Assembly: GCF_014204895.1 (NCBI RefSeq)
Contig: NZ_JACHMF010000001.1
Coordinates: forward strand, 3,162,001-3,226,000
Source: Paractinoplanes abujensis
Lineage (GTDB): Bacteria; Actinomycetota; Actinomycetes; Mycobacteriales; Micromonosporaceae
DNA length: 64,000 nt
Direction: 5' to 3'
Shown here: positions 2,877-62,102 of the stretch, in pieces
How positions within the stretch are numbered: the stretch's first letter is position 1
How the letters are laid out: every line of letters starts with the position of its first letter
The notes under the pieces: model-generated
Databases searched by the model: none
What the model saw: only the letters and a program-made list of their open reading frames with translations
What the model was told of the DNA's origin: nothing
Translations under genes and position numbers: made by a program

Positions 2877-3983
2877 TTAGAGCGGCAGCCACTCCATGCT
2901 CGTGGTGATCTCGGCGAGGATCTCGGGGATCGGCTCGACGCCCAGGCCGGGCCCCGCCGGCACGGGCAGGTGGCCGTCCTCGAGCACGAACGGTGCGGTG
3001 ACGTCCGTACGGAAATAGCGGTCCGACCCCGACGTGTCGCCGGGCAGGGTGAAACCGGGCAGGGCGGCCAAAGCCACGTTGGCCGCCCTGCCCAGGCCTG
3101 TTTCGAGCATGCCGCCGCACCAGACGGGGATGCCGTTGGCGACACACACGTCGTGGATGCGGCGGGCCTCGAGGTAGCCGCCGACCCGGCCCGGTTTGAC
3201 GTTGACGATGCTGCACGCGCCCAGCCGGATGGCGTCGGCGGCGGCACGGGCCGACACGATCGACTCGTCCAGGCAGATCGGGGTCCGCACGCGGCGGGAC
3301 AGCTCGACGTGACCGAGCACGTCCTCCTCGTCCAGCGGCTGCTCGATCAGCAGCAGGCCGAACGGGTCGAGCGCGGCCAGCAGCGGCGCCTGCCCCACCG
3401 TGTACGCCGTGTTCGCGTCCACCTGCAGCAGCACATCGTCACCGAAGCGCTCGCGGACCGCCCGTACGGGCTCGACGTCCCAGCCCGGCTCGATCTTCAG
3501 CTTGATCCGGACGTAGCCCTGCGCGAGGTAGCCGTCGACCGCGTCGAGCAGCTGGGGGATCGAGTCCATGATGCCGACCGACACCCCGCACGGCACCCGG
3601 TCGCGGGTGGCGCCCAGCTCGCGGGCGAACGAGCGGCCCTCGGCGCGCAGTTCGGCGTCGAGCACCGCGGTCTCCAGTGCGGCCTTGGCCATCCGGTGAC
3701 CCTTGAACCTGTGCAGGGCCGGCGCGACGGCGGTGGCCGCGGCGGGTCGGCGGGCGGCCAGCGCGGGCACCAGGTAGCGGCGCAGCACGTCGGCCGCGGC
3801 CTCGACGTATTCGCTGGAGTAAAGGGGGTCGCTCATCGCGACGCACTCGCCCCACCCCTCGGCCTCGTCGGTGACGGCCCGCAGCAGCAGGACGTCGCGC
3901 TCGGTCTCGGTGCCGAACGACGTGCGGAACGGCGCCACCAGCGGCATCTTGATGCGGCGCAGCTCGATCCCGGTCAGTTTCAC
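2877..3983 (-). CDS. N-succinylamino-acid racemase / o-succinylbenzoate synthase (enolase superfamily)
   Basis: A 368-residue enolase-superfamily enzyme of the OSBS/NSAR group. Catalytic residues are in place: the KxK pair K161-L-K163, metal ligands D189 (VDAN), E214 (IEQP) and D239 (CLDES), and the second-face base K263 (NVKPGRVGG). OSBS makes a menaquinone precursor; NSAR racemises N-succinylamino acids. No other men gene is nearby, whereas a GNAT and an M20 amidohydrolase overlap in one operon. That is the arrangement of the Geobacillus pathway that turns D- into L-amino acids by succinylation, racemisation and desuccinylation. I therefore infer NSAR as the physiological role. The GTG start overlaps the GNAT stop (GTGA). 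Confidence 0.8.
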
Positions 3984-4801
3984 GCGTCTGCCCTCTCCAC
4001 CACATACCAGCCGGCCCGGTCGAAGCCGGTCACCCGGGCCCCGCCGTCGATCAGGGAACCGAGCACCTCCCGTACGGCGACCCGCCAGCGCCGGGCACAC
4101 GCCACATCGGTGCGGCGCAACGACTCGATGTCGGACGGCACCGCGACCAGCACCGTCCGGCCGGTGACGGGGCGCGGGACCGGGTCGCCGTCGGGCCCGC
4201 GGTCCAGGGCGACGGCCGCCCCGGTCAGGTCCGGCGCCGGCAGCGGGCCGTGCGGCGCGGTCAGGTCCCAGCGCATCAGCAGCCGGTCGGTGTCGTCGGC
4301 GCCGTTGATGCCGTCGGTCATGGCGCCGTAGAAGTGCGGCAGATACTGCACCGGGCGACCGCCCAGTTTGACCATGTTGAAGTACGCGTTACGGCTGACC
4401 AGCGGATCGAAGGTCCAGCTGATGGTGTGCACGCCCAGGTCGAGCGCCCAGGCCCGCTGATGCAGTTTGAGGGCGTAGCCGATGCCCCGGCCGTGCGCGG
4501 CCCGGCCGACCCCGGCGATGTGGCTGTGCATCTCGCGGCGCCCGGGCGGTCCGAAAAAGGCGATGCAGGCCCCGACCATGCCGCCGGCGTCGAACGCCCC
4601 CGCCACGTAGTTGCCGGCCTTGGTCATGGCGCGCAGCAGGTCACGGGTGACCGGCGGGTCGGCCGGGTCGGACCGCCAGATGCTGTCGAACAGCCGGCAC
4701 ACGTCGTGCAGCTCGGCCAGCTCGGTCAGGACACGGATCTCGACCCCGGCCGCCCGGGCCGCCGCGTCGGCCGCCGGGGTCGGGCTGAGCAGGTCACTCA
4801 C
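3980..4801 (-). CDS. GNAT-fold N-acyltransferase, probable D-amino-acid N-succinyltransferase
   Basis: A 273-residue GNAT protein. The acyl-CoA binding motif is clear at about 97-110 (VGRAAHGRGIGYALK), followed by a long C-terminal half (WTFDPLVSRNAYFNMVKLG) typical of the larger GNATs found beside enolase-superfamily racemases. In Geobacillus kaustophilus a GNAT in the same place succinylates D-amino acids; the activity here is inferred from context, and acetyl-CoA remains possible. The start is GTG at 4801, overlapping the upstream M20 gene by 8 bp, and its own stop overlaps the racemase start by 4 bp, so the three are tightly coupled. Confidence 0.75.
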   Translation of the reverse strand: MSDLLSPTPAADAAARAAGVEIRVLTELAELHDVCRLFDSIWRSDPADPPVTRDLLRAMTKAGNYVAGAFDAGGMVGACIAFFGPPGRREMHSHIAGVGRAAHGRGIGYALKLHQRAWALDLGVHTISWTFDPLVSRNAYFNMVKLGGRPVQYLPHFYGAMTDGINGADDTDRLLMRWDLTAPHGPLPAPDLTGAAVALDRGPDGDPVPRPVTGRTVLVAVPSDIESLRRTDVACARRWRVAVREVLGSLIDGGARVTGFDRAGWYVVERADA

Positions 4802-5891
4802 TGCCGGTCACCTCTCCCACCAGCGCCGCGACCAGCGCCGCCCGGCGCGGGATCTCGGCGACGACCACGTGTTCGCCGGGGGCGTGCGCGCCGCCGCCGA
4901 CCGCGCCGAGCCCGTCCAGGGTAGGCGTGCCGGCGCCGGCGGTGAAATTGCCGTCCGAGGCGCCGCCGACCGCGGCCCGGCCCAGCGGGGGCAGGCCGAG
5001 CCGCACGGCGACCGCCTCGGCCCGGGCGTAGAGGGCTTCGGACGCGGCGGCCTCCAGGGGCGGGCGGTTGGGGCCGCCCTCGATCGTGATCCGGGCACCC
5101 GGCAGCACCGGGGCCAGCGAGGTCAGGGCCACGTCGACGCGCCGCTGCTCGGCGGTGGTGCGGGCACGCACGTCGACGGCGAACTCGCCCCGGGCGGGAA
5201 CGGTGTTGGTGGTGGTGCCCGCGGTCATCCGGGCCGGCACCACTGTCGTGCCCAGGGCTGGGTCGGCCAGGGCCTGCACGGCGAGCACCTGGTGGGCCAG
5301 TTCCACGGTGGAGTTGACGCCGGCCTCGGGTTCCAGGCCCGCGTGCGCGGCCCGGCCGGTCACCCGTACGGCGTACAGGGAAACGCCTTTGCGCTCGGTC
5401 TTGAGGGCGCCCCCGTCGGCCGCCCCCTCCAGCACCAGGGCCGCCGCGCATCCGGCGGCCTCCTTCTCGATCAGCTCCCGCGACGTGGGCGAGCCCAGCT
5501 CCTCGTCCCCGGTGATCAGCACGGTCACCCCCGCGCGGTTCGTGAGTGCCGCCACCGCGTGCAGGGCCTGCACCACGCCCGCCTTCATGTCGAAGCAGCC
5601 CGGCCCGCGCAGGGTCTCACCCGTCACCTCGTACGGGTGGTGCGCGAGGGAACCGATCGGCCACACCGTGTCATGGTGACCCAGCAGCAGCACCCGCGGC
5701 GGGCCGTAGCCGAAACGCCACCGCAGGTGGGTACGCCCGTCGATCACGATCCGCTCCGGGTGCGCGCCGAGCCGGCGGTGACCGATCGCGGCCAGCACCT
5801 CGGCGCTGCGGGCCACGGCGGCCCGGTCGTCCGAGGGCGACTCGCAGGTCACCAGCTCCCGCAGGTCGGCCAGCATTTCGCGCAGGTCCAT
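4794..5891 (-). CDS. M20-family metallo-amidohydrolase, probable N-succinyl-L-amino-acid desuccinylase
   Basis: A 365-residue cytoplasmic M20 peptidase of the carboxypeptidase G2/ArgE type. Di-metal ligands can be placed: H72-x-D74 (GHHDTV), bridging D101 (GPGCFDMKAG), catalytic and ligand E130/E131 (TGDEELG), E155 (VLEG) and a C-terminal His in GGGAHAPGEHV. A dimerisation domain runs from about 170 to 280. The family removes acyl groups from amino acids or cuts C-terminal residues. Position between an S9-S12 peptidase and a GNAT/racemase pair suggests the last step of D-to-L conversion: release of the free L-amino acid. The ATG lies 1 bp after the upstream stop. Confidence 0.78.
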   Translation of the reverse strand: MDLREMLADLRELVTCESPSDDRAAVARSAEVLAAIGHRRLGAHPERIVIDGRTHLRWRFGYGPPRVLLLGHHDTVWPIGSLAHHPYEVTGETLRGPGCFDMKAGVVQALHAVAALTNRAGVTVLITGDEELGSPTSRELIEKEAAGCAAALVLEGAADGGALKTERKGVSLYAVRVTGRAAHAGLEPEAGVNSTVELAHQVLAVQALADPALGTTVVPARMTAGTTTNTVPARGEFAVDVRARTTAEQRRVDVALTSLAPVLPGARITIEGGPNRPPLEAAASEALYARAEAVAVRLGLPPLGRAAVGGASDGNFTAGAGTPTLDGLGAVGGGAHAPGEHVVVAEIPRRAALVAALVGEVTGSE

Positions 5892-5892
5892 C

Positions 5893-8800
5893 TCAGCTCA
5901 CCTTCGGGGTCGCCCGCACGCCCAGGTGCAGGTAACGCTCGCCGGTGGGCAGCCGGTAGAAGTACACCGGGAACCACGTGTCGCTCTGCGGCATCCGTAC
6001 GAGGAAAAGGTCGTCCTTGACGGCGACCAGGGGCAGCTCGTGCACGGGCTCGGGGGTGAGCTCGGCCAGCGGCCCGGTCTGGGTCATGCGCAGAGTGGGA
6101 CCCTCCAGGACCTCGAGGCGCGTGCTGGCCCGCTCGTAGGTGCCCAGGTGGGGCGTGATGTCAACCGCGACCGGCGGCGACGGCGGCGTCAACGGCCGGG
6201 GCATGGTCACCCCGGCCACCTCGGCGAAGATCTCACCGAACAGGTCCTGGTAGAGGTCGCGGGCACCCTCGCCGTTGGTCAGCAGGGTCACAGCCAGGTC
6301 CTGATCGGGCAGCAGGCGCAGGAACGCGGACTGGCCGATGGTGTTGCCGTCGTGGCCGATCAGCCGGTGCCCGTCCCAGCCGAACCGGATCCAGCCCAGC
6401 CCCCAGGAGTCGCCCAGCGTGTACTTCTCGGGCAGCTCGACCTGCTCCTCGGCCATGGCGGCGGTGCCGGCCGCGCTCAGCACGTCCCCGCCGCCGTTCA
6501 GGTGCATCCGCGCGAACGTCAGCAGATCGGCCGCCGTCGAGTTGATCAGACCGGCCGGGCCGAGGGCGCGCGGCAGCATCCAGACCGGCGCCACCTGCGG
6601 GCCGGGCACGTGACCGGTGGCCGCCCGGTGCAGCAGGGCCTCCTCGGGCAGGGTGCCGGTGCGGCGCAGGCCGAGCGGGGTGCTGATCCGATCCCGTACG
6701 GCCGCGTCCCAGGTGCCGCCGGTGAGCTTCTCGATCACCCGGCCGGCCAGGGAGAACCCGGAGTTGCAGTACGACCAGGTGGCGCCGAGCGGGTGGTTCT
6801 GCGCGACGTCGGCGAGCCCGTCGACGTACTTCTCCAGGCAGTCGTCGCCGCGTCCGGTGTCGGTGAAGACGTCACCGTCGATGCCGCTGGTGTGGGTGAG
6901 CAGATGCCGCATGGTGACCTTGGCCGCCACACCGGAGTCGGCCAGGGTCAGCTCGGGCAGCACATCGGCGATCGGCGCGTCCAGGTTGAGCTTGCCCTCG
7001 TCGACCAGTTGCTGCACGAGGGTGGCGGTCCAGACCTTGCTGATCGAACCGATCTGGAACACCGAATCGGTGGTGACGGCCACGCCGGTCTCGACATTGA
7101 GCACCCCGTACGCGGCCTCGACCAGCTCGTCCGTTCTGGAGATGCCCAGCACCGCCCCCGGCACGCCGTGCCGCTCGGCCAGCACGTTCAGGCGCCGCTG
7201 CCAGTGCGCGGCGTCCAGCGGCTTGCGCCCGGCGCCGGTGTGCCGCTGCACCCACTCGGCGATCCGCCGGTTGAAGTCGGCGCGCTGCGACGGCGGGCCC
7301 TCCACGATCAGCAGGTGCGAGCCCTCCGGGTAGAGCACCAGCTCGGCCGGGACGCCACGCTCGCGCAGCGCGGTGTGCCACTGCTGGGCCTGACCGACCG
7401 GGCAGCGCAGGTCGGCCGCCCCCTGGATGATCAGCGTCGGGGTGGTCACGTCGGCCACCCGGGTCAGCGGGGACATCGCGGCGTACCGTTCGGGCGCGTC
7501 CCACGGGCGTCCGCCGAGCTCGATGTCGGCCAGCAGATGCCCGTCGTCCGACGAGCCGGCCATGCTGGTCAGGTCGCTGACCACTCCCCCGGCCACGGCG
7601 GCGGCGAACCGGCCGTCGGTGGCGGTGAGAAAGCAGGTCATGAAGCCGCCGTAGCTGTACCCGGCCACCGCCAGCCGCGCCGGGTCGGCGAGGCCCTCGG
7701 CGACCAGCTGATCGAGCGGTTCGAGGAAGTCGCGGGCGTCGGCCTCGCCCCACGCGCCCAGGGCGGCGTTGAAGAACTGCTCGCCGTAGCCGTCGCTGGC
7801 CCGCGGATTGACCAGCAGCACCGTCCAGCCCCGGGCGACCAGGTGCTGGTGATACAGGTGGATGTCGTCGGCGGCGCCGTTCCACGCGTTGTGCGGGCCG
7901 CCGTGGATGTCGAGCAGCAGCGGCCCGGCGCCGGTGACCTCGGGGTCGCGCAGCAGCCAGCCCTGCACGACAGTGCCGTCCGAGATCGTGAACTCGCGCT
8001 CCTCGCGCACGAACAGCTCGATCTCGTCGTTCGTGAGTTCGGTGTGCACCGTTTCGGCGTTCGTCCCGGTGTTCACCGTGACGATTTCCCCGTACGAGGT
8101 GGGGGTGGCCAGGACGATCGCCGCGGTGTCACCGGCCGTGGACAGGCCGGCCACCACTCGTCCGGCGCCGGCCACGACCGGGCGGGGCTCACCGCCGTCG
8201 GTGCCGACCGCGTACAAATGCGAACAACCCTTGTCCCGTACGCAGAAAAGCACCTCGCCGCCGGCGAACCGCGGCACCGCGCCCGGGTACGCCGGCCCGC
8301 CCGGCATCACGTTGCGGTCGAGGCCCGCGGCCAGGTCACGCACCGGGCCGCCGTCGAGCGGCACCAGGAGCAGACGCGCGTGGCCCCGCGGAGCGCCCGG
8401 ATAGCCGACCACCACCAGCGCGTCACCCTGCGGCGTCCACACCGACGGACCGGCCACGCCGCCGGCCAGACCCACCACGACCGGGCGGGCCTTGAGGTCG
8501 GTGACGTCGAGGACGTGCAGGGGCGCACGGAACACCAGGTCGGCGTCCGGCGCGGTGGCCGCCGCGAACGCGAGCCGGGTCGAGTCGGGCGACCAGGCCG
8601 GGTCACCCGCGTGCCAGTCGCCCTCGGTCACCTGCCGCAGCTCACGGCGGCCGACGTCGAGCACGAACAGGTGCTTGCGCAAGTCACGCAGCCAGCCGGC
8701 GCCGTCGGCCTGATAGTCGAGACGCTCGGTGACGATCGGGTCGCCCCGCCCGGCCCCGGTCGTCGCGACGGCCGCGGCGAAGGCGATTTTCGTGCCGTCC

Positions 8801-9141
8801 GGGCTCCACACCGGCGCGCCCGCACCCGCGGGCAGGTCGGTGGCGGCCTCGGCCTCACCCCCCGCGGTGGGCAGCAGCCAGATCTGGGCCGGCCCGTCCT
8901 CACCACGCAGGAAGGCGAGGTGCGCCCCGTCGGGCGACCAGGCGGGTGACGTGTCGGCCGCCCCCCGCGTGAGCCGCCGCGCGCCGTCGTCGTCGGCCAG
9001 CCAGATACTGCGGGTGACCCGATCGGCCTTCTCGTCGTTGGCCCGGACCACGTACGCGATCCGTCCACCGTCCGGGCTCAGGGCGGGCTGCTCCGGCGTA
9101 GTCACCGACATCAGGTCATCGATCTGCGCACGACGTGCCAC
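5893..9141 (-). CDS. S9 prolyl-oligopeptidase-like / S12 beta-lactamase-like fusion hydrolase
   Basis: A 1082-residue protein joining two serine hydrolases. Residues about 1-380 form a TolB/WD40-type propeller (repeated WSPDG); about 385-640 is an S9 alpha/beta-hydrolase with Ser496 (GYSYGGF), Asp577 (GAADLRCP) and His609 (EGSHLL). From about 645 to the end is an S12 domain with S699-x-x-K702 (GSISKVW) and a YCN motif. S12 members include D-aminopeptidases, DD-peptidases and esterases. No signal peptide is visible, so it should act in the cytoplasm on imported peptides. GTG start with ribosome site GAGGGGG. The S12 half closely resembles the separate protein at 12323-13690, which suggests duplication. 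First gene of the racemase operon. Confidence 0.85.
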   Translation of the reverse strand: MARRAQIDDLMSVTTPEQPALSPDGGRIAYVVRANDEKADRVTRSIWLADDDGARRLTRGAADTSPAWSPDGAHLAFLRGEDGPAQIWLLPTAGGEAEAATDLPAGAGAPVWSPDGTKIAFAAAVATTGAGRGDPIVTERLDYQADGAGWLRDLRKHLFVLDVGRRELRQVTEGDWHAGDPAWSPDSTRLAFAAATAPDADLVFRAPLHVLDVTDLKARPVVVGLAGGVAGPSVWTPQGDALVVVGYPGAPRGHARLLLVPLDGGPVRDLAAGLDRNVMPGGPAYPGAVPRFAGGEVLFCVRDKGCSHLYAVGTDGGEPRPVVAGAGRVVAGLSTAGDTAAIVLATPTSYGEIVTVNTGTNAETVHTELTNDEIELFVREEREFTISDGTVVQGWLLRDPEVTGAGPLLLDIHGGPHNAWNGAADDIHLYHQHLVARGWTVLLVNPRASDGYGEQFFNAALGAWGEADARDFLEPLDQLVAEGLADPARLAVAGYSYGGFMTCFLTATDGRFAAAVAGGVVSDLTSMAGSSDDGHLLADIELGGRPWDAPERYAAMSPLTRVADVTTPTLIIQGAADLRCPVGQAQQWHTALRERGVPAELVLYPEGSHLLIVEGPPSQRADFNRRIAEWVQRHTGAGRKPLDAAHWQRRLNVLAERHGVPGAVLGISRTDELVEAAYGVLNVETGVAVTTDSVFQIGSISKVWTATLVQQLVDEGKLNLDAPIADVLPELTLADSGVAAKVTMRHLLTHTSGIDGDVFTDTGRGDDCLEKYVDGLADVAQNHPLGATWSYCNSGFSLAGRVIEKLTGGTWDAAVRDRISTPLGLRRTGTLPEEALLHRAATGHVPGPQVAPVWMLPRALGPAGLINSTAADLLTFARMHLNGGGDVLSAAGTAAMAEEQVELPEKYTLGDSWGLGWIRFGWDGHRLIGHDGNTIGQSAFLRLLPDQDLAVTLLTNGEGARDLYQDLFGEIFAEVAGVTMPRPLTPPSPPVAVDITPHLGTYERASTRLEVLEGPTLRMTQTGPLAELTPEPVHELPLVAVKDDLFLVRMPQSDTWFPVYFYRLPTGERYLHLGVRATPKVS

Positions 9142-9958
9142 GGTTCCCCCTCGCCTGACGACTTCTTAGCGCGAAGCCTGCCCGCCCCCAGGGCCCCGTG
9201 TCATTGTGCAAGCCAACGAGTCCAAGGCGTTCAACTCGTCCGCCCGCACGTAACTCCAGAACGTGCCCACCCCGAGCAAGCCGCGCACCCCACCGCCGCC
9301 ACCCCATGCGCACCATCGCGCAACCACCCAGCGCCGCTGCTTGGACGCACACCATCGCGCAACCACCCAGCTCCGACGCACACCATCGCGCAACCACCCA
9401 GCTCCGCTGCTTGGACGCGCACACCCAGCGCCGCTGCTTGGACGCACACCATCGCGCAACCGCTCAATGCCGCGCGCTACTCCGCCGTCGACCAACGCGC
9501 AATCAACCAACGCCGCGCGCTACTCCGCCGTCGACCAACGCGCAATCAACCAACGCCGCGCGCTACTCCGCCGTCGACCAACGCGCAATCAACCAACGCC
9601 GCGCGCTTCTCCGCCGTCGACCAACGTGCAACGCCGCGCCACCACTCATCCGCCGCGCCCAACGCACAACAATGCGCAACCACCGAGCGCCGTCCATCGC
9701 CGATATCCGAGCACCATCCGGCGCCGCCGACCAACACTCAACTCCGCGCACTACTCGCCCGCTGACGCCCGGCGCACAACAATGCGCAATTACTTGGCGC
9801 CGCCGTCCCGATGCCCTCCATCAGGCAGATCAATCAGCCGCCGTCCGATTGCACAACACCGCGCAATCACTCGGCGCCGTACGACGCTGCGCGAGCATTC
9901 CGCGCTGCGCGTGGGCAGGAAGCTGCGCGTCTCGGTGCGCGATGGGGGCGGTCGGGGG
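9142..9958. repeat. Intergenic region filled with degenerate short repeats
   Basis: About 800 bp without a credible gene. From about 9300 it holds repeated variants of CACCATCGCGCAACCACCCA alternating with GCTGCTTGGACGCACA. A 43-bp tandem array follows at 9467-9632, then looser copies of GCACAACAATGCGCAA (near 9665, 9774 and 9851). The right end (about 9905-9935) carries the motif in the opposite sense (GGAAGCTGCGCGTCTCGG). Frames on both strands stay open only because of base composition; units of different, non-triplet length and no ribosome sites argue against coding. The promoter of the S9-S12 operon must lie near 9145-9250, but I see no clear -35/-10 pair. Confidence 0.75.
9467..9632. 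repeat. 43-bp tandem repeat, about four copies
   Basis: The word CGCGCGCTAC recurs at 9471, 9514 and 9557, and as CGCGCGCTTC at 9600: an exact 43-bp period. Each unit contains CTCCGCCGTCGACCAACG and GCGCAATCAACCAACGCC. The first three copies are nearly identical and the fourth decays, as expected of recent slippage or unequal exchange. 43 is not a multiple of three, so this is not a protein repeat. Confidence 0.85.
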
Positions 9959-11587: not shown

Positions 11588-11591
11588 GCGA

Positions 11592-12335
11592 TCAATTCCC
11601 GAGCGGTGCGCCGGGACGCGGGACAGCTTCGAGCAGTTCGCGTGTGTATTCGTGGCGCGGGTTGAGCAGTACCTGCTCGACCGGGCCGTACTCGACGATC
11701 CGGCCGTGGCGCATCACCGCCACGATGTCGCTGACGTAGCGCACCACGGCCAGGTTGTGCGAGATGAACAGCATCGTCAGCCGCATCCGGCGCTGCAGCT
11801 CACGGACCACGTTGAGCACCGTGCCCTGGATCGAGACGTCCAGGGCCGAGGTGATCTCGTCGGCCACGATCACCTCGGGCCGGCCGGCGAGGGCGCGGGC
11901 CAGCGCGACCCGCTGCCGCTGCCCGCCGGAAAGCTCGTCGGGGCGGGCGCCGGCCCGGTCCGCGGCCAGGCCGACCAGTTCCAGCAGCCGGGCCACCTCG
12001 GCCCGCCGGTCCGCGCCGCGCGGCATCGCCTCGGCGATGGAGGCGCCGATGGTCATCCGCGGGTCGAGCGCGGAGTACGGATCCTGGAAGATCATCTGCA
12101 GCGGCCGGGTCTTGAGCGTTGGCACGGGCCGGCCGTCGAGCAGGATCCGGCCCGCCGTCAGGGGCGCGAGCCCGACCGCGGCACGGGCCAGGGTCGACTT
12201 GCCCGAGCCGGACTCGCCGACCAGCCCCACCACCTGCCCGGCCGGCACGACCAGGTCGACGCCGTCGACCGCGAGCGTGCCGTGCCGGCGCGAACCGAAC
12301 CGCACCGACACGCCCTCGAAGGTCAGCTCGCGCAT
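11592..12335 (-). CDS. Dipeptide/oligopeptide ABC transporter ATPase (DppF/OppF type)
   Basis: A 247-residue nucleotide-binding subunit. Walker A is GESGSGKST (40-48), the Q-loop is MIFQDPYSALDPR, the signature LSGGQRQRVALARAL, Walker B VIVADEITSALD and the H-loop FISHN. It lacks most of the C-terminal oligopeptide-type extension, so it is slightly short for OppF (usually about 300 or more residues). It should pair with the second ATPase domain, which is fused to the DppC permease at 13687-16212. Its start overlaps the end of the S12 hydrolase gene by 13 bp. Confidence 0.88.
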   Translation of the reverse strand: MRELTFEGVSVRFGSRRHGTLAVDGVDLVVPAGQVVGLVGESGSGKSTLARAAVGLAPLTAGRILLDGRPVPTLKTRPLQMIFQDPYSALDPRMTIGASIAEAMPRGADRRAEVARLLELVGLAADRAGARPDELSGGQRQRVALARALAGRPEVIVADEITSALDVSIQGTVLNVVRELQRRMRLTMLFISHNLAVVRYVSDIVAVMRHGRIVEYGPVEQVLLNPRHEYTRELLEAVPRPGAPLGN

Positions 12336-13690
12336 CGCGGGGTCGCCCTCGCGCCGAAGTGCACGTACTTCTCGCCGGTGGGCAGCTCGTAGAAGGTGGC
12401 GGGCACCCAGTTGCCGGTCTCCGGGTCCTGGCAGACGAACAGGTCCGGCGCCACCGCGACCATCGGGTAGTCGACCGGCTCCTCCTGCAGCAGCTCGGCC
12501 ATCGCGCCGGTGATGCTCAGCCGCATGACCGGGCCGTTGGCGCCGACGTTGATCTCCTGACGGATGCTGGCCCGCTCGTACGTGCCCACGTACGGGTCGA
12601 CGTCGACGTCGACGGGCGTGGACGGCGGGCCGAGCGGGTGCGGGACGGGCACCCCGGCCAGCTCCGCGAAGACCTCGCGGTACAACTCCTCGTACAGCTT
12701 GGCGCCGTTACCGCCGTTGGTCAGCAGCGCGACCGCGACGTTCTGCTCGGGCAGGATGCGCAGAAACGCGGCCTGGCCGATGGTGTTGCCGTCGTGGCCG
12801 ATCAGCCGGTGGCCGTCCCACAGCGCGCGTTCCCAGCCCAGGCCCCACGAGTCGCCCAGCGTGTGCTTGTCGGGCAGCTCGACCTGGTGCTCGGCCATCG
12901 CGGCGGCGCTCGCCTCGCTCAGCACCCGGGTGCCGTCGGGCGCGACCCCGCCGGCCAGGTGCATGCGCGCGAACTCCAGCAGGTCGGCCACGGTCGAGAT
13001 GATCGAACCGGCCGGCCCCGCCGACCGCGGGATGGCCCAGACGGGCGCCACGGTCTGCTTGCCGTCGTGCGTGACATGCCCGGCCGCGGCCCGGTGCAGC
13101 AGTGCCTCCTCGGGCAGGGTCATCGTCCGTTCCAGCCCGAGCGGCGTGACGATCTTTTCCCGTACGGCGGCGTCCCACGTGCCGCCCGTGAGCTTCTCGA
13201 CCACGCGGCCGGCCAGCGAGAACCCGGAGTTGCAGTACGACCAGGTGGCCTCGAGCGGGTGGTTCTGGGCGGCGTCGGCCAGCCCCGTCACGTACTTCTC
13301 CAGACAGTCGTCGCCGCGCCCGGTGTCGGTGAAGATGTCGCCGTCGATGCCGCTGGTGTGGGTCAGCAGGTGCCGCATGGTCACCTTGGCCGTCACCCCC
13401 GGGTCGCTCAGCCGCAGCTCGGGCAGCACATCGACCAGCGGCGCGTCGAGCTGCAGCTTGCCCTCGTCGACCAACTGCATGACCAGGGTGGTCGTCCACA
13501 CCTTGCTGATCGAGCCGATCTGGAACAGCGAGTCGGTGGTCACGTCGACGCCGGTCCGCAGGTTCAGGACCCCGTACGCGGCCTCGCCGATCTCACCCTC
13601 GTGCAGAATGCCCAGGGTCGCCCCCGGCACGTCATGCCGCTCGGCGATCTCAGCCAGGCGCCGGGTCCAGTGTTCGACATCAATGGTCAT
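12323..13690 (-). CDS. S12-family serine hydrolase (beta-lactamase/D-aminopeptidase fold)
   Basis: A 455-residue stand-alone S12 enzyme. Motifs are S60-x-x-K63 (QIGSISKVW), YCN (about residue 153) and an HDG motif (RLIGHDGNTIGQ) in the place of KTG. A C-terminal beta-barrel-like extension follows, as in D-aminopeptidases and esterases of the group. There is no signal peptide, so it is unlikely to be a secreted beta-lactamase or cell-wall DD-peptidase. It is highly similar, over its whole length, to the C-terminal half of the S9-S12 fusion at 5893-9141. Encoded between two transporter ATPases with ATGA coupling to the upstream gene, it probably hydrolyses the imported substrate, plausibly peptides with D-residues. 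Confidence 0.82.
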   Translation of the reverse strand: MTIDVEHWTRRLAEIAERHDVPGATLGILHEGEIGEAAYGVLNLRTGVDVTTDSLFQIGSISKVWTTTLVMQLVDEGKLQLDAPLVDVLPELRLSDPGVTAKVTMRHLLTHTSGIDGDIFTDTGRGDDCLEKYVTGLADAAQNHPLEATWSYCNSGFSLAGRVVEKLTGGTWDAAVREKIVTPLGLERTMTLPEEALLHRAAAGHVTHDGKQTVAPVWAIPRSAGPAGSIISTVADLLEFARMHLAGGVAPDGTRVLSEASAAAMAEHQVELPDKHTLGDSWGLGWERALWDGHRLIGHDGNTIGQAAFLRILPEQNVAVALLTNGGNGAKLYEELYREVFAELAGVPVPHPLGPPSTPVDVDVDPYVGTYERASIRQEINVGANGPVMRLSITGAMAELLQEEPVDYPMVAVAPDLFVCQDPETGNWVPATFYELPTGEKYVHFGARATPRCAS

Positions 13691-16212
13691 CCTCGTTCTC
13701 CTCCCAGGGAAGCGGCGGGCCGATCGTCCTTCTCGTCATCCGGCACGACGTCGTGGTCCGGAACCGTCCGGTTGTCCGGCACGACGTCGTCATCCGGCAC
13801 GACGTCGTCGTCCGGAACCGTCCGGTTGTCCGGCACGGCCGCCGGCGGGCCGGCCGGGGCTGTCCGGTTGCCGGGCACGGCTGCGGGGGCCCGGTCGGCG
13901 TGCCAGCAGGCGACCCGGCGTCCGGCGGCGTACGAGGCCAGCGGCGGGTCTGCGCGCCGGCACTGCTCGGTGGCGAGCGGGCAACGCGGGGCGTACGGAC
14001 ACCCCACGGGCAGGTCGTGCGGGTCCGGCGGCCGGCCCGGAATGACCGCCAGCGGGGCGTCGCGGTCGGTCGTCATGTCGGGAACGGCGGCCACCAACGC
14101 CCGCGTGTACGGGTGGCGGGCATCGTGCAGCAGGGCATCGGTGGGCACGTCCTCGACCACGCGGCCGGCGTACATGACCAGCACCCGGTCGCAGACCTGC
14201 CCGACCACCGTCACGTCGTGACTGATGAACAGCAGCCCGACGTCTTCGGCGGCACGAATGTTCGCGAGCAACTGCAGAACCTGCCGCTGCACAGTCACGT
14301 CGAGCGCCGTGGTCGGCTCGTCGGCGATGATCAGCTTCGGGTTGGCCATCACGCCCATGCCGATCATCGCGCGCTGGCGCATACCGCCGGAGAACTCGTG
14401 CGGCAGCTGCTTGGCGCGACGCTCAGCATCCGAGATGCGCACCGCGGACAGCCGATCGACAGCCCGGCGCCAAGCCGTCCGCCGATCCACCCGCTGATGC
14501 TCGCGAACAACTTCGGCCAGTTGCCGCCCCACCCGATGAACAGGATTGAGCGAAGTCATCGGATCCTGAAAGACCATGGCCAACGAGGTCCCCAACATCC
14601 GCCGCCGCTCGCTCGCGCTCAGCCCCGGCCCCGCACCCAAACGCTCACCCTCACGCGAACGCTCACCATCGCCCGAACGCTCACCATCACCCACCTGCTC
14701 GACGCCGCGCGCACGCTCACCATCGCGCACCTGCTCAACGCCGCGCAGCCGCTCACCATCACCCGACTGCTCAACGCCGCGCAGGCGCTCACCATCACGC
14801 AACTGCTCGGTGCTGCTCGGACGCTCGGAATCGCGCGACTGCTCGACGCTGCTCGAAAGCTCACCATCGCCCGAACGCGCAACTGCGCGCGACTGCTCGA
14901 CGCTGCCCGCATGCTCACCACCGCGCAACTGCTCAACGCCGCGCAGCCGCTCACCATCACGCAACTGCTCGACGCTGCGCGAGCGCTCATCGTCGCGCAG
15001 GTCGACGCCGAGGAACTCCAGGCGGTCGGCGGTTACCCGGCCGGGGTGTTCGATCAGTTGGGCGATGGCGAGCGCGGTCAGGCTCTTGCCCGAACCGCTT
15101 TCGCCGACGATGCCGATTGCTTCGCCGGGGCGCATCGTGAGGCTGACCCCGCGTACGGGGGTCACCTCACCGGTCGCCGTGGGGAAGCCGACGCGCAGGT
15201 TGCGCACCGCCAGGAGCGGCTGATCGGCAGGAGGCGGTTCGGGTTGCGCCGCCGGCGGTTCGTGGCCGGGGGCCGTCCCGGTGTGCTTGCTCGTGTGTGA
15301 CGCGCGCACACCGATCGCGCGGGCGACGGCCTCACCGGACAGGTTGAACGCCATCGCGGCCAGCACCACGGCCACCCCCGCGGCCAGGGCGCCCGCCGGG
15401 TGCACGTAGATCTGGGCCAGCCCCTCCCCCAGCAACCGCCCCCAGTCGTAGCTGGGCGCCTGCACGCCCAGCCCGAGGAACGACAGGCTCGCGAAGGACA
15501 ACAGCGCGCTGCCCAGCGCCATCGTGGCCGAGACCACCAGCGGCTCGGCGATGTTGGGCAGCACGTGGCGGATCAGGATGCGCATCCGCCCGATCCCGGC
15601 CACGCGGGCGGCGGCGATGAAGTCCCGGCTGGAGATACCGGCGGCCATCGTCTGGGTGAGGCGGGCGAAGCCGGGTGCGGTCGCGAAACCGATCGCCAGC
15701 ACCGCACCGCGCGCGCCGACGCCGAAGATCACGGCGAAGAACAGCGCGAGCAGCAGCGACGGGAAGGCGACGGCGATGTTGATGAACGCGCTGATCCAGC
15801 GGCCGACCCAGCGACCGAGCCGGCGTTCGCCGCCGCGGCCGAGCAGGGTGGGCGCGGTGCCGAGCACGAGCCCGGCGGTCACCCCGATCACGGTGGCCAG
15901 CAGGGCCAGCCCCACCGACAGGCGGGTGGCGACCAGCACCCGGGCCAGAATGTCGCGGCCGAGCAGGTCGGTGCCGACCGGGTGGGCCGACGACGGGCCC
16001 TGCAGGATCTCGGCCGACTGCACCGCCTCCGCGCGGTCCTGCCAGATCAGCGGGGCCACCACCGCCAGCACCAGCACCGCGAGCAGCAGCACGGCGGCGG
16101 TGATCCCAAGCGGGCTGCGCAGCGCGGCCGGCCACCGCCGGGCCGTGGGCGCCGGCCGGGTGAGCTCGATGGCCATCAGGTCTTCGGGGGCACCGTTGAG
16201 TGGGGCGGCCAT
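13687..16212 (-). CDS. Fused peptide ABC transporter permease-ATPase (DppC-DppD) with inserted repeats
   Basis: An 841-residue polypeptide carrying two transporter subunits that are normally separate. Residues about 25-300 are a DppC permease with several membrane segments and the EAA loop (AARVAGIGRMRILIRHVLPN). After a Pro-rich linker, about 330-780 is a DppD ATPase: Walker A GESGSGKS (about 365), Q-loop VFQDPMTSLNP (about 550), signature FSGGMRQRAM, Walker B LIIADEPTTALD and the Cys-bearing oligopeptide C-terminal domain. Two repeat blocks break the family pattern: a 120-residue hexad array between Walker A and the Q-loop, and a C-terminal VPDDDV/VPDNRT tail. All core motifs are intact, so it may be functional. 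It overlaps DppB by 1 bp and the S12 gene by 4 bp. Confidence 0.85.
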   Translation of the reverse strand: MAAPLNGAPEDLMAIELTRPAPTARRWPAALRSPLGITAAVLLLAVLVLAVVAPLIWQDRAEAVQSAEILQGPSSAHPVGTDLLGRDILARVLVATRLSVGLALLATVIGVTAGLVLGTAPTLLGRGGERRLGRWVGRWISAFINIAVAFPSLLLALFFAVIFGVGARGAVLAIGFATAPGFARLTQTMAAGISSRDFIAAARVAGIGRMRILIRHVLPNIAEPLVVSATMALGSALLSFASLSFLGLGVQAPSYDWGRLLGEGLAQIYVHPAGALAAGVAVVLAAMAFNLSGEAVARAIGVRASHTSKHTGTAPGHEPPAAQPEPPPADQPLLAVRNLRVGFPTATGEVTPVRGVSLTMRPGEAIGIVGESGSGKSLTALAIAQLIEHPGRVTADRLEFLGVDLRDDERSRSVEQLRDGERLRGVEQLRGGEHAGSVEQSRAVARSGDGELSSSVEQSRDSERPSSTEQLRDGERLRGVEQSGDGERLRGVEQVRDGERARGVEQVGDGERSGDGERSREGERLGAGPGLSASERRRMLGTSLAMVFQDPMTSLNPVHRVGRQLAEVVREHQRVDRRTAWRRAVDRLSAVRISDAERRAKQLPHEFSGGMRQRAMIGMGVMANPKLIIADEPTTALDVTVQRQVLQLLANIRAAEDVGLLFISHDVTVVGQVCDRVLVMYAGRVVEDVPTDALLHDARHPYTRALVAAVPDMTTDRDAPLAVIPGRPPDPHDLPVGCPYAPRCPLATEQCRRADPPLASYAAGRRVACWHADRAPAAVPGNRTAPAGPPAAVPDNRTVPDDDVVPDDDVVPDNRTVPDHDVVPDDEKDDRPAASLGGERG
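13739..13836 (-). repeat. 18-bp tandem repeat encoding a C-terminal hexapeptide tail
   Basis: Units of 18 bp alternate between GTCCGGCACGACGTCGTC and GTCCGGAACCGTCCGGTT (plus-strand reading), five full copies and a partial one. They encode Val-Pro-Asp-Asp-Asp-Val and Val-Pro-Asp-Asn-Arg-Thr hexads at the C-terminus of the permease-ATPase fusion. A related but degenerate copy (VPGNRTAPAG) precedes them. Confidence 0.85.
14641..15000 (-). repeat. 360-bp in-frame array of 18/36-bp repeats inside the DppD ATPase domain
   Basis: On the plus strand CTGCTC recurs at 14695, 14731, 14767, 14803, 14839, 14893, 14929 and 14965, spaced 36 bp except for one 54-bp step. Each 36-bp unit is two 18-bp halves (CTGCTCAACGCCGCGCAG and CCGCTCACCATCACGCAA). 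Three single 18-bp units precede them from 14641. The array encodes about 120 residues of RDGERLRGVEQL-type dodecads (residues 405-524), placed between FLGVDLR and LSASERR, where other DppD/OppD proteins have only a short link. Confidence 0.9.
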
Positions 16213-17195
16213 CAGCTCTCCCGGATCGCCGAGCGCGGATCGAGCAGGGCCAGCGCCACGTCGACCACCAGGTTGATCAGCAGCACGCCGATGCCGTAGA
16301 CGAGCACCACGCCCTGCACCGTCGGGTAGTCCTTGGCCAGGATGGACTGGACGATCGTGCCGCCCAGCCCGGGCCAGGCGAAGATGTTCTCGACCAGCAC
16401 GGTGCCCGCCACGAGCGCGCCCAGCAGCAGGCCGCCGATCGTCAGCGTGGCGGTCAGCGCGTTGGGCAGGGCGTGCCGCAGGTAGACGGCCGTGGAGCGC
16501 AGACGTTTGGCTCGGGCCGTACGGATGTAGTCGGTCTGCATCACCGCGAGCAGTTCCACCCGTACGATCCGGGCCAGCATGAAGGCCGGGCCGATGGCCA
16601 GTGACAGCACCGGGAGCACGTACGAGTCGGGGCCGGAACGGCCGGCCACGGGGAGCCAGCCCAGCTGGACGCCGAAAACGAACACCAGCCCCACCGCCAT
16701 CAGGAACTCGGGGATGGTGGCGACGACGACACCGGTCGAGGTGAGGAACCAGTCCCCGCCGCGGCGCCGCCCGTGCCGGGCCAGCACGGTCATCAGCGTG
16801 CCCAGCGGCACCGAGACGACGACGGCCACGGCGAACGCCAGCAGCGCCATCTCGACGGTGGAACCGAGCCGGGCCGAGATCACCTCGCTCACCGGCAGCC
16901 CGGACGTCATCGAGACGCCCAGGTCGCCGGTCACGAGGTGGCCCAGGTAGTGCAGGTACTGCAGCCACAGCGGGTCGTTGAAGCCGAGCGCCTCGCGCCG
17001 CTGCTCGATCAGCGCGAGCGGGGCGGTCGGGCCCAGCGCCGCCCGTACGGGATCGCCAGGAAGCACGTGGATCATGAGGAACGCGGCGGTCACCAGCACC
17101 CAGACCGACACCACGAGCCGCGCCGCCCGGCGCAGGCCGAACCGTACCCACGGGTTGTCGGCCAGGGTCACCGGCCGGGACGCCACGATCGTCAT
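16212..17195 (-). CDS. Dipeptide/oligopeptide ABC transporter permease (DppB type)
   Basis: A 327-residue integral membrane permease. The first membrane segment is near residue 30, followed by the conserved periplasmic block LPGDPVRAALG and five further segments. The cytoplasmic EAA loop ARAKRLRSTAVYLRHALPNA contacts the ATPase. Start ATG at 17195 has a GGAGG ribosome site. It lies 12 bp downstream of the binding-protein gene and overlaps the permease-ATPase fusion by one base (TGATG), consistent with a single transporter operon. Confidence 0.92.
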   Translation of the reverse strand: MTIVASRPVTLADNPWVRFGLRRAARLVVSVWVLVTAAFLMIHVLPGDPVRAALGPTAPLALIEQRREALGFNDPLWLQYLHYLGHLVTGDLGVSMTSGLPVSEVISARLGSTVEMALLAFAVAVVVSVPLGTLMTVLARHGRRRGGDWFLTSTGVVVATIPEFLMAVGLVFVFGVQLGWLPVAGRSGPDSYVLPVLSLAIGPAFMLARIVRVELLAVMQTDYIRTARAKRLRSTAVYLRHALPNALTATLTIGGLLLGALVAGTVLVENIFAWPGLGGTIVQSILAKDYPTVQGVVLVYGIGVLLINLVVDVALALLDPRSAIRES

Positions 17196-17207
17196 GTCAG
17201 CCTCCGG

Positions 17208-18755
17208 TCAGCCCAGCATGCGGATCGACGACGGGTCGACGTCACCTTCGGAGAGGTTGAACTCGACCCCGTTGCCGATCGACGGCGCGTTGGAGTTGGC
17301 GAACGGCACCAGGTCCAGATTCGACACCACCGCCTTCTCGGCCGCGGCCCACTGCGCACAACCGCTCTCGCCGGTCAGTTTCTGGGCCTCGGTGACCGCG
17401 GCGACGTATTCCTTGTTGTCGAAGGCGGCGAAGTTGGCCCCGTTGGGCGGAGTCGGTCCGGACAGGAACGAGATCAGCTGGCTGGGCAGCGTCACGCCGA
17501 TCGGGAACAGCGCCACGTCCCAGGCCAGCTGACCGGCGGCGATCTGTCCGACCTGCGTGGTCGTCACCGACTTGAGTTCCACCTGTACGCCGGCCGCCTG
17601 CCACTGCTGCTGCAGGAGCTCGGCGGCGGCCTGCGCACCCGGGTTGCCGGTGTTGCCCCAGGCCACCACGAGCTTCTTGCCGACGGCCCCGGTGGCGGCC
17701 AGGGCCGTCTTGCCTCCCGCGGCGTCGAAGGCCGGCAGGTTGCCGGTCACCGTGTCGCCCTTGCAGGGGGTCATCGCCGGGGCGACCAGGCCGGTCGCCG
17801 CGGTGCCGCGGCCGCTGGTGAAGACCTGCTGCATCTGGTTCAGGTCGACCGACTGGATCAGCGCCTTGCGCACGGCCAGGTCGGCGGTCGGCAGCCCGGC
17901 CTTCTGGTTGAACCAGAGCTCGCCGGTCGGGGCCAGCACGTCGCGCTTGAGGAACTGGTCGCCCTGCAGCCGGGCGGTGTCGGGGCCGGTGAACCGGGCC
18001 ACGTTGACCTCGCCCGAGAGCACCAGGTTGGCGGTGGTGGTCTCGTTGGTGATGACCCGGATGACCACCTTGTCGGGCAGGCCCACCGTGTCGGCCTTGT
18101 AGTCGCCCGGCCCCCACGCGTACTCCTTGCGCCGGGTCAGCGTGTAGTGATCGTCCGGCACGGCCTCGGTCACCGTGTACGCCCCGGTGCCTTCGGACGC
18201 CTGCTTGAGCGTGGTCCGGTCGGCCAGGCCCTTCTCGCAGACGATCGGCAGGCCACCCAGGTTGCGCTCGAGGAACGCGTCGGGCGTGGGCGAGGTGACG
18301 CTGACCGTGCCCGCGGTGTCGTCGGCGGTGGCCTTCGCGCCGGCCGGCACGTAGAGGCCGATCCGGGTCGAGGAGTTCTTGGGGTCGCCGACGAAGGTGA
18401 TGTTCTTGGCCACCGTGGCCGCGGTCAGGGGCGTGCCGTCCGCGCAGGTGATGCCCTTGCGCAGGGTGAAGGTGGCCGCCGTGCTGGTCGACTCCCACTT
18501 CTCGGCCAGACCGGGCAGCGTCTTGCCGTCCGGCGCGAACCCGAGCAGGGAGTCGTACAGGAATCGGTCGACCTGGCCGGTGACTGTCAGGGACGTGAAG
18601 TGAGGATCGAGGTTGCCGGGGTCGCCCGCGACAGCCATCGTGAACGTCTTGCCGTTGACGGGCTGGCGGCCGCTCGCGCCGCCCCCGCCGTCGTTACCGC
18701 AGGCGGCCGCGAGCACCACAGTGCCCAGCGCGGCCGCGTATCGCCAAGCCTTCAT
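17208..18755 (-). CDS. Peptide-binding lipoprotein of ABC transporter (SBP family 5)
   Basis: A 515-residue extracellular substrate-binding protein anchored as a lipoprotein: a short signal peptide and lipobox LAAAC with Cys19, followed by a Gly-rich linker. The mature part begins KTFTMAVAGDPGNLDPH, characteristic of the DppA/OppA family (SBP_bac_5). It captures peptides or related compounds for the DppB/DppC-D/DppF machinery. It is the first gene of the operon (GGAGG ribosome site before ATG 18755). The substrate cannot be read from sequence; the downstream S12 hydrolase and D-to-L enzymes suggest peptides with D-residues, for example from peptidoglycan. Confidence 0.9.
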   Translation of the reverse strand: MKAWRYAAALGTVVLAAACGNDGGGGASGRQPVNGKTFTMAVAGDPGNLDPHFTSLTVTGQVDRFLYDSLLGFAPDGKTLPGLAEKWESTSTAATFTLRKGITCADGTPLTAATVAKNITFVGDPKNSSTRIGLYVPAGAKATADDTAGTVSVTSPTPDAFLERNLGGLPIVCEKGLADRTTLKQASEGTGAYTVTEAVPDDHYTLTRRKEYAWGPGDYKADTVGLPDKVVIRVITNETTTANLVLSGEVNVARFTGPDTARLQGDQFLKRDVLAPTGELWFNQKAGLPTADLAVRKALIQSVDLNQMQQVFTSGRGTAATGLVAPAMTPCKGDTVTGNLPAFDAAGGKTALAATGAVGKKLVVAWGNTGNPGAQAAAELLQQQWQAAGVQVELKSVTTTQVGQIAAGQLAWDVALFPIGVTLPSQLISFLSGPTPPNGANFAAFDNKEYVAAVTEAQKLTGESGCAQWAAAEKAVVSNLDLVPFANSNAPSIGNGVEFNLSEGDVDPSSIRMLG

Positions 18756-62090: not shown

Positions 62091-62096
62091 GCGCGG

Positions 62097-62102
62097 ATAG
62101 TA
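62097..62102 (-). promoter_or_regulatory. -10 box for a probably leaderless RTX-gene transcript
   Basis: TACTAT on the minus strand ends 6 bp before the GTG start at 62090. There is no Shine-Dalgarno sequence before that start. The arrangement matches that upstream of trkH (TATAAC, 6 bp before ATG). Confidence 0.5.

What the first reader, a model, noticed from the sequence alone, without database searches (positions are those of the whole stretch)
2877..18755. A complete candidate system for importing D-residue peptides and converting them to L-amino acids
Seen: one strand carries a peptide-binding lipoprotein, DppB, DppC-DppD, an S12 hydrolase, DppF, a PucR regulator, an S9-S12 fusion peptidase, M20, GNAT and an OSBS/NSAR enolase-superfamily gene, most of them overlapping or a few bases apart. 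Known: in Geobacillus kaustophilus GNAT + NSAR + M20 convert D- to L-amino acids irreversibly by succinylation, racemisation and desuccinylation; S12 includes D-aminopeptidases. Inference: peptides containing D-residues, perhaps muropeptides, are imported, cut by the two S12 activities plus an S9 peptidase, and the freed D-amino acids are inverted for use. I know of no description of all these parts as one unit.
Basis: partly seen in the sequence, partly recalled or inferred. Interest (0 to 1): 0.82.

Follow-up and report, generated by a model that had tools for sequence, protein, structure and literature searches.

The report
D-peptide import and inversion gene set
A conserved block of soil-bacterium genes looks like a complete kit for taking in peptides that contain mirror-image (D-) amino acids, cutting them up and flipping the D-amino acids into the usable L form, but none of its enzymes has been tested here.

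Summary
In detail: 2877-18755 (- strand) encodes a peptide-type ABC importer, an S12 hydrolase, a PucR regulator, an S9-S12 fusion, M20, GNAT and NSAR. It is a conserved unit. Of 80 actinobacterial loci fetched by GNAT similarity, 79 have NSAR, 71 M20, 67 PucR; 24 hold all eleven parts, all 24 in one order. Similar sets lie on Streptomyces plasmids, in two near-identical records with a divergent Dpp importer. The NSAR is 77% identical to the characterised Amycolatopsis enzyme.
The main rival, menaquinone OSBS, fails computationally: of 31 genomes holding the locus, 22 have MenD and the same 22 a separate MenC; 8 others have futalosine genes, 1 neither.
D-specificity of S12, GNAT and M20 is inferred; muropeptides are not supported. 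The pieces have precedents (Pab87, dpp-ykf, the Geobacillus pathway), so this is a new variant of a known kind; my paper searches found no account of the whole. It bears on a textbook promiscuity case: an enzyme published as OSBS and stored as menC sits in an N-acylamino acid racemase setting.

The parts
17208..18755 (-). family-5 solute-binding protein (N-terminus looks like a lipoprotein signal, LAAAC; judged by eye, my simple pattern did not match it)
   Evidence: PF00496, E 2e-48; sequence
16212..17195 (-). DppB-type permease
   Evidence: PF00528, PF19300
13687..16212 (-). DppC-DppD fused permease/ATPase (open frame to 17151; likely ATG at 16212)
   Evidence: PF00528 + PF00005 + oligo_HPY in one frame; one frame in 42 of 43 loci where both were found
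12323..13690 (-). stand-alone S12 serine hydrolase, no evident signal peptide (by eye); SISK (60), YCN (152), HDG (299)
   Evidence: PF00144 1.1e-66; motifs; tree
11592..12335 (-). DppF-type ATPase
   Evidence: PF00005 + oligo_HPY
9959..11587 (-). PucR-family regulator
   Evidence: PF13556 + PF17853; in 67 of 80 loci
9142..9958 (-). gap without a called gene, with tandem-repeat array (43 bp x 3.9 at 9465-9631; others 9304-9461)
   Evidence: sequence
5893..9141 (-). S9 (beta-propeller + prolyl-oligopeptidase) fused to S12 hydrolase, 1082 aa
   Evidence: PF07676, PF00326, PF00144; Ser496/Asp577/His609 and S699/K702, Y791/N793, H930/G932 invariant in 31 aligned fusions; fused in 37 of 47 loci with S9
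4794..5891 (-). M20 metallo-hydrolase of the carboxypeptidase-G2-like group
   Evidence: PF01546 + PF07687; closest solved 1cg2
3980..4801 (-). GNAT acyltransferase, COG3375-like (COG name taken from the finding, not tested)
   Evidence: weak PF00583/PF13480, just under cut-offs; R105/G108/A110 invariant in 52 sequences; many relatives named 'predicted GNAT superfamily acetyltransferase'
2877..3983 (-). N-succinylamino acid racemase/OSBS-family enzyme (frame opens at 4100)
   Evidence: TIGR01928 303 bits, cut-off 200.65; 282 of 365 residues identical to 1SJA; catalytic Lys, metal ligands and Arg266 equivalent present

Best explanation
An inducible catabolic module for D-residue peptides. The binding protein and DppBCDF import short peptides; the cytoplasmic S9 and S12 activities of the fusion, helped here by a second S12 enzyme, release single residues, S12 at the D-residues; GNAT acylates (probably succinylates) the freed D-amino acids; NSAR racemises the N-acyl derivatives; M20 hydrolyses only the N-acyl-L form, pulling the racemisation towards L-amino acids; PucR senses a pathway compound. 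Shown by computation: the genes, their conservation as a unit, kept catalytic residues of NSAR, S12 and S9, and that menaquinone does not explain NSAR in the genomes tested. Inferred: every substrate and stereospecificity, the cell compartment, induction and the regulator's role.
For: Conserved order in 24 of 24 complete loci and content in 80. NSAR 77% identical to the Amycolatopsis enzyme; a review lists kcat/Km 42,000 M-1 s-1 for AmyNSAR on N-succinyl-phenylglycine, and 1,111 and 350 for the Amycolatopsis enzyme on N-acetyl-methionine enantiomers (PMC8142540, passages). GNAT with NSAR in 41 of 44 phylum loci, in Deinococcus radiodurans with one gene between (same GNAT family, 135 bits), and with M20 as a second paralogous triad in this genome. 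Dpp genes of another lineage beside GNAT-NSAR-M20 in L128 and beside S9-S12-M20-GNAT-NSAR on a Streptomyces plasmid (L157). A D-aminoacylase-like gene in 31 of 80 loci. S12 relatives include D-specific peptidases. Menaquinone role not supported.
Against: No activity is shown. The closest solved S12 is an esterase reported without apparent enantio-preference (PMC9972953, passages). The full module is not universal: in 44 deep loci only 6 have M20, 5 an S12 relative, 2 an S9 relative; of 20 same-genus GNAT loci that I chose, mostly divergent, 10 have no NSAR in the stretch; 18 of the 80 loci show fewer than two Dpp genes at 40% identity, some because the stretch ends. A D-aminoacylase in the variant would undo the GNAT step unless it acts on imported N-acyl-D-amino acids. 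The loci were chosen by GNAT similarity, which biases GNAT-linked counts. In the phylum sample NSAR goes with MenD (35 of 46 against 67 of 152), so a double OSBS role in deep lineages is open.
Confidence: 0.6

Rival explanations
1. NSAR is the o-succinylbenzoate synthase (MenC) of menaquinone synthesis and its neighbours are unrelated.
For: TIGR01928 'o-succinylbenzoate synthase' over cut-off; plasmid records annotate it menC with a menaquinone term; a review says the Amycolatopsis enzyme's biologically relevant function is OSBS (PMC4215206, passage); NSAR and MenD associate across the phylum sample.
Against: This genome has no MenD over cut-off and two MqnA/D-type genes. In 31 genomes with the locus, MenD is in 22, a separate MenC of the actinobacterial type in the same 22, futalosine genes in 8 others, neither in 1.
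Confidence: 0.03
2. The module salvages N-acylated amino acids or acyl-peptides of either hand: GNAT is a side activity, and NSAR with M20 (and the D-aminoacylase-like enzyme) recovers free amino acids from racemic N-acyl pools.
For: M20 is closest to carboxypeptidase G2, which acts on N-acyl-L-glutamates (specificity recalled); a D-aminoacylase-like gene in 31 of 80 loci; best-matching S9 chains include acyl-peptide hydrolases.
Against: The most conserved partner of NSAR is an acyltransferase (41 of 44), which a purely deacylating pathway does not need.
Confidence: 0.17
3. Defence or detoxification: the set destroys D-residue non-ribosomal peptides made by neighbours.
For: S12 relatives 6ksu (SurE, name recalled), Ulm16, ClbP and alkaline D-peptidase act on D-residue products (recalled); plasmid copies lie among transposase genes; D-stereospecific peptidases are reported to give resistance to such peptides (cited in PMC12516957, passage).
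Against: Neither S12 protein shows an evident signal peptide (by eye), and a full import and inversion path points to nutrition.
Confidence: 0.13
4. The S12 parts are esterases or peptide ligases and the peptide importer serves ordinary L-peptides.
For: Closest solved structure IS11 is a carboxylesterase; a PBP-type cyclase is among the next.
Against: Repeated linkage of S12 with GNAT-NSAR, also in deep loci L088, L089, L098 and Arthrobacter L160.
Confidence: 0.07

Closest known systems
Geobacillus kaustophilus GNAT + NSAR + M20 pathway (from the finding and recall; the original paper was not seen)
   Same: Same three enzyme families, adjacent here.
   Different: Here joined to a Dpp importer, S9-S12 fusion, extra S12 and PucR; activities untested.
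Pab87/CubicO D-peptidase and its neighbourhood in Pyrococcus abyssi (PMC2651629, passages and the conclusion section)
   Same: S12 enzyme proposed to process environmental D-peptides, beside a dipeptide ABC transporter and a D-aminoacylase.
   Different: No NSAR, GNAT or S9 fusion named in what I read; archaeal; its context lists a PLP aminotransferase.
Bacillus subtilis dpp-ykf murein-peptide genes (PMC2954226, passages)
   Same: Dipeptide importer beside an enolase-superfamily enzyme that deals with a D-residue.
   Different: Uses an L-Ala-D-Glu epimerase, LD-carboxypeptidase and NlpC/P60 peptidase; none seen here.
Amycolatopsis N-acylamino acid racemase/OSBS (1SJA; PMC8142540, PMC4215206 passages)
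   Same: Close relative, 77% identical, same catalytic residues.
   Different: Discussed there as a single enzyme; the operon setting and menaquinone survey are added here.
IS11 carboxylesterase, S12 with lipocalin domain (PMC9972953, passages)
   Same: Closest solved S12 relative, similar length.
   Different: Assayed on esters (best on an (R)-2-hydroxy-3-phenylpropionate ester); from a hot-vent metagenome.

Membership tests
D- to L-amino acid inversion pathway (GNAT-NSAR-M20) | NSAR with two catalytic lysines, metal ligands and the Arg266 equivalent | tested here: met
   window protein. Orthologues: KLK in 79 of 79, KPGR in 69 and KPSR in 10 of 79. A stricter four-motif pattern matched 65 of 79; besides KPSR, the misses are a changed DES motif in 8 and KLKxP in 1, not examined. 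Residue numbers recalled
D- to L-amino acid inversion pathway (GNAT-NSAR-M20) | GNAT and M20 encoded together with NSAR | tested here: met
   NSAR 79 of 80, M20 71 of 80 GNAT loci; but M20 in only 6 of 44 deep loci
D- to L-amino acid inversion pathway (GNAT-NSAR-M20) | succinyl-CoA:D-amino acid transferase and L-specific desuccinylase activity | not testable with these tools
   needs enzyme assay
MenC / OSBS of menaquinone synthesis | sequence over an OSBS model's cut-off | tested here: met
   TIGR01928 303.1 bits, cut-off 200.65; whether that model separates NSAR from OSBS was not tested
MenC / OSBS of menaquinone synthesis | MenD present and no other MenC | tested here: not met
   0 of 31 genomes has MenD without a separate MenC; the window genome has no MenD over cut-off
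S12 D-peptidases (Pab87/CubicO, DAP) | SxxK, YxN, HxG motifs | tested here: met
S12 D-peptidases (Pab87/CubicO, DAP) | C-terminal lipocalin domain | tested here: inconclusive
   about 100 residues follow the stretch aligned to 7spn, which ends at residue 354; no structure could be predicted
S12 D-peptidases (Pab87/CubicO, DAP) | cleavage of D-residue peptides | not testable with these tools
   needs assay
dpp-ykf murein peptide use | dipeptide epimerase (not NSAR) | tested here: not met
   L-Ala-D/L-Glu epimerase models 53-60 bits, cut-offs 343-500
dpp-ykf murein peptide use | LD-carboxypeptidase and NlpC/P60 endopeptidase | tested here: not met
   absent from the ten proteins of the locus
Dpp/Opp peptide importer | family-5 binding protein, two permeases, two ATPases | tested here: met
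   substrate not tested, and the NCBIfam Nik/Opp/Dpp models shown are all below cut-off

The most novel reading that the evidence does not exclude
A widespread actinobacterial module, also carried on Streptomyces plasmids, turns D-residue peptides (most likely non-ribosomal peptides or their fragments) into L-amino acids. It would be the true biological setting of the enzyme long cited as a promiscuous OSBS, with the S9-S12 fusion acting as a combined L- and D-residue peptidase in one chain.
Probability: 0.35. Interest if true: 0.8.

Novelty: new variant of a known kind. Interest (0 to 1): 0.64.

Why it matters
It gives a physiological context to the NSAR/OSBS enzyme, a standard example of enzyme promiscuity, and suggests that database names (menC, menaquinone) are wrong for the members that sit in this locus. 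It predicts how soil actinobacteria reuse D-amino acids from peptides, links S12 'beta-lactamase-like' hydrolases and an S9-S12 fusion to a pathway, and supplies a compact gene set that can be tested whole in a laboratory strain.

Tried and rejected
Menaquinone role: not supported in the 31 genomes tested. Muropeptide-only reading: no supporting peptidases among the ten proteins. A conserved regulator box: TTGYRCAA, seen by eye near the repeats, occurs 12 times in the window stretch plus 80 loci and 0 times in the 250 bases upstream of the seven genes tested in those loci; dropped. tRNA-Pro as an insertion point: no tRNA in five relatives' loci (L006-L009, L013), which shows only that it is not shared; dropped. 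Mirror-tree correlations (r 0.62-0.87) reflect shared ancestry too and are not used as evidence. A GNAT C-terminal motif as a mark of NSAR-linked copies did not separate them (0 of 41 far, 4 of 10 linked and 1 of 10 unlinked genus copies). Structures of GNAT and the fusion could not be made.

Papers: the ten searches were made; none listed a paper that I recognised as describing the whole set. The library lacks most subscription journals, so this is weak evidence of absence. Nine papers were opened, all as passages, plus one section of PMC2651629; PMC5808125, PMC7431475 and PMC4922564 gave nothing that the argument rests on.
Full report
WHAT IS THERE. The window lies in a 9.33 Mb single-contig genome; the four best-matching named loci are Paractinoplanes. 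On the - strand, reading 18755 to 2877, Pfam and NCBIfam give: family-5 solute-binding protein, DppB permease, fused DppC-DppD, S12 hydrolase, DppF, PucR regulator, an 817-base gap, S9-S12 fusion of 1082 residues, M20, GNAT and an NSAR/OSBS-family enzyme. Within the two blocks genes overlap or nearly touch. The importer parts score under the cut-off of every NCBIfam model shown (the lists of the ATPases are capped at 25), so the importer is peptide/nickel-type by family and its substrate is open. GNAT is weak in Pfam, just under the cut-offs, and has no relative in the PDB at E 0.01, but many homologues are named GNAT acetyltransferases by their sources.

CONSERVATION. A scan of species genomes with the GNAT protein confirmed 106 loci and kept the best 80. 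At 40% identity or more, of 80: NSAR 79, M20 71, PucR 67, S12 63, SBP 54, DppB 53, DppD 49, DppF 47, S9 47, DppC 43. Eight of the 80 are 20,000 bases or shorter, and in others the stretch ends inside the set (for example nine where S9 runs off the end), so transporter and S9 counts are lower bounds. The loci were chosen by GNAT, so GNAT itself is not counted. Controls, four genes flanking the window locus, do not travel with it: ClpP in 2 of 80 (L006, L007), an SDR at 30-39% identity in 4, the RibD-like and methyltransferase genes in 0. Twenty-four of 80 hold all eleven parts and all 24 have the order SBP-DppB-DppC-DppD-DppF-S9-S12-M20-GNAT-NSAR-PucR, in Kribbella, Nocardioides, Actinophytocola, Kibdelosporangium, Actinomadura and others. 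The window's own order differs: PucR lies between DppF and the fusion and an S12 gene is inserted, as in the Paractinoplanes, Micromonospora and Nucisporomicrobium loci. S9 and S12 share one frame in 37 of 47 loci with S9; 9 run off the locus end and 1 has S9 alone. A database search across the junction gave 1539 proteins, of which the best 120 are listed; as far as I read the rows, all carry both PF00326 and PF00144.

A SECOND ARCHITECTURE. Thirty-one of 80 loci, mostly Amycolatopsis with some Streptomyces and others, hold a relative of a PF07969 amidohydrolase; in the example L029 it directly precedes M20. That one representative is closest among solved structures to N-acyl-D-glutamate deacylase and D-aminoacylase. 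Complete copies on Streptomyces plasmids read PucR, MFS, PF13354 hydrolase, amidohydrolase, M20, GNAT, NSAR, PucR, S12, PF13354 hydrolase, SBP, DppB, DppC-DppD, DppF, S9-S12 (in one search the first PucR is seen only by profile, and searches show a transposase gene before SBP). The fusion covers at least 80% of the query in 10 of 72,556 plasmid records, of which I opened 8. In all I opened 12 plasmid records (two stretches of one record). By profile: Streptomyces L154, L155, L162, L163 and L158 hold the enzyme set with a high-scoring importer (DppB 463-558 bits), S9 and S12 being in separate frames in L158; L157 has a divergent Dpp importer (DppB 168 bits) with S9-S12, M20, GNAT and NSAR; L164 is nearly the same sequence as L157, not independent, and GNAT was not separately called there; L161 lacks Dpp and S9 in the stretch and is cut by transposase genes; L160 (Arthrobacter) has Dpp, two S12, M20, GNAT, NSAR but no S9; L156 (Embleya) has the fusion with NSAR some 85 kb away; L153 (Variovorax) has S12 and S9 adjacent without NSAR; L159 (Deinococcus radiodurans) has only NSAR, a binding protein and GNAT. 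Where these records are annotated, NSAR is called menC with a menaquinone term.

DEEPER RELATIVES. In 198 genomes drawn across the phylum, GNAT (E 1e-20) is in 40 and NSAR (E 1e-45) in 46; all 40 GNAT genomes have NSAR. I fetched 44 loci from 43 of these 46 genomes (not the window's, G058 or G080): GNAT lies with NSAR in 41 of 44 (in L088 with PucR between); M20 in 6 (one, L092, at only 43 bits), an S12 relative in 5, an S9 relative in 2. L088 has S9 and S12 in one frame beside GNAT, PucR and NSAR, so the fusion is linked there too. L128 shows SBP, DppB, DppC, DppD, DppF, GNAT, NSAR, M20 with distant proteins, apparently a separate assembly of the same idea. The window genome holds a second GNAT (36-37% identical), NSAR (42-43%) and M20 (38%) side by side. 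Against this: in the genus, GNAT relatives (E 1e-40) occur in 37 of 67 genomes, and of 20 loci I chose there, mostly divergent, 10 have NSAR, 5 M20, 1 S9. So the stable core is GNAT-NSAR, often with M20 in the nearer relatives; importer and peptidases are a frequent but not universal extension.

THE ENOLASE-FAMILY ENZYME. It is 77% identical (282 of 365) to the Amycolatopsis enzyme of 1SJA. Residues at the positions of Lys163, Lys263, Asp189, Glu214, Asp239 and Arg266 (numbers recalled) are kept in the window protein. In the 79 orthologues KLK is in all, KPGR in 69 and KPSR in 10; a stricter four-motif pattern matched 65, the other misses being a changed DES motif in 8 and KLKxP in 1, which I did not examine. 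[quoted passage not shown] another lists AmyNSAR and AmedNSAR with high activity on N-succinyl-phenylglycine (PMC8142540, passage). I tested the menaquinone role in the window genome and in the 31 genomes whose loci held DppD, DppF, S9, S12, M20, GNAT, NSAR and PucR. Window genome: no MenD over cut-off (best 61 bits, cut-off 244), two MqnA/D-type genes. Of the 31: MenD in 22 (21 over cut-off), MqnA/D-type genes in 8 others, neither in 1, whose assembly quality is not given; a separate actinobacterial-type MenC is over cut-off in exactly the 22 MenD genomes. So in none is this enzyme the only candidate MenC beside a MenD. Across the phylum sample, however, NSAR is commoner in MenD genomes (35 of 46 against 67 of 152, p 1.7e-4, not corrected for kinship), so a double role in deep lineages stays open.

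THE PEPTIDASES. The stand-alone S12 and the fusion's S12 domain keep SxxK, YxN and HxG motifs. In the tree of 76 S12 domains the window's stand-alone gene and six Micromonosporaceae kin fall inside the fused clade; 30 other stand-alone genes (Amycolatopsis, Streptomyces, Umezawaea and others) form a separate clade; one Nocardioides stand-alone row (L064) sits within the fused rows and seems to have lost S9. The closest solved relative is IS11, an esterase with a lipocalin domain; then 6ksu, PBP cyclase Ulm16, 9sn1, Pab87 (2qmi), the R61-type DD-peptidase, alkaline D-peptidase, another S12 peptidase and ClbP. Pab87 degrades D-residue peptides, and its gene lies near a D-aminoacylase and a dipeptide transporter (PMC2651629): a similar neighbourhood. 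The S9 part is nearest to S9/acyl-peptide hydrolases. Neither S12 protein shows an evident signal peptide, so cleavage is probably in the cytoplasm after import (by eye). M20 is nearest to carboxypeptidase G2; the second-locus and L128 M20 proteins score best against the same three NCBIfam models, below their cut-offs.

READING. Linkage, order, plasmid copies and two pairings with other Dpp importers (L128, L157) support one function: uptake of peptides and conversion of residues through N-acyl intermediates. The D-specific steps rest on the families: NSAR activity in a close relative (published), S12 relatives, and the D-aminoacylase-like partner of the variant. Muropeptides are possible but unsupported. 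No tool here could test substrate, stereospecificity or induction, and the structure queue was full at all 19 tries.

NOVELTY. Every part has a precedent, and the concept of D-peptide use with a Dpp importer was proposed for Pyrococcus and, for murein peptides, in Bacillus. What appears new, within the ten paper searches listed under Tried and rejected, is the joined actinobacterial module, the S9-S12 fusion in it, its plasmid copies and the menaquinone survey that separates this NSAR from MenC.

Noticed in passing
window 9304-9683 (- strand intergenic): Tandem-repeat array (43 bp x 3.9, 31 bp x 2 and others) between PucR and the S9-S12 gene; the one motif tried was not shared by relatives.
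   Followed up: partly
L086 (window genome C1:2461000-2480000): A second GNAT, NSAR-like and M20 set, 36-43% identical to the window's, with M20 on the opposite strand.
   Followed up: partly
L132, L135-L139, L141, L143, L144, L151: Same-genus GNAT relatives without NSAR in the fetched stretch; role unknown (L151 has S9 and M20 instead).
   Followed up: partly
window 28868-32026: 1052-residue protein joining polysaccharide deacetylase, GT2 glycosyltransferase and LytR-CpsA-Psr domains.
   Followed up: no
window 60888-62258: Protein with five RTX-type calcium-binding repeat stretches, in an actinobacterium.
   Followed up: no
window 32434-33315: Protein with four BTRD1 repeat stretches (polyglycine hydrolase-like).
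   Followed up: no
window 2353-2447: tRNA-Pro (cgg) just downstream of the locus; none found in five relatives' loci.
   Followed up: partly
L153 (Variovorax plasmid CP063168.1): S12 and S9 genes adjacent but unfused, with a membrane dipeptidase and another serine hydrolase nearby; no NSAR.
   Followed up: no
L159 (Deinococcus radiodurans pMP1): The NSAR gene, annotated menC, is separated by one gene, an ABC binding protein, from a GNAT of the same family.
   Followed up: partly
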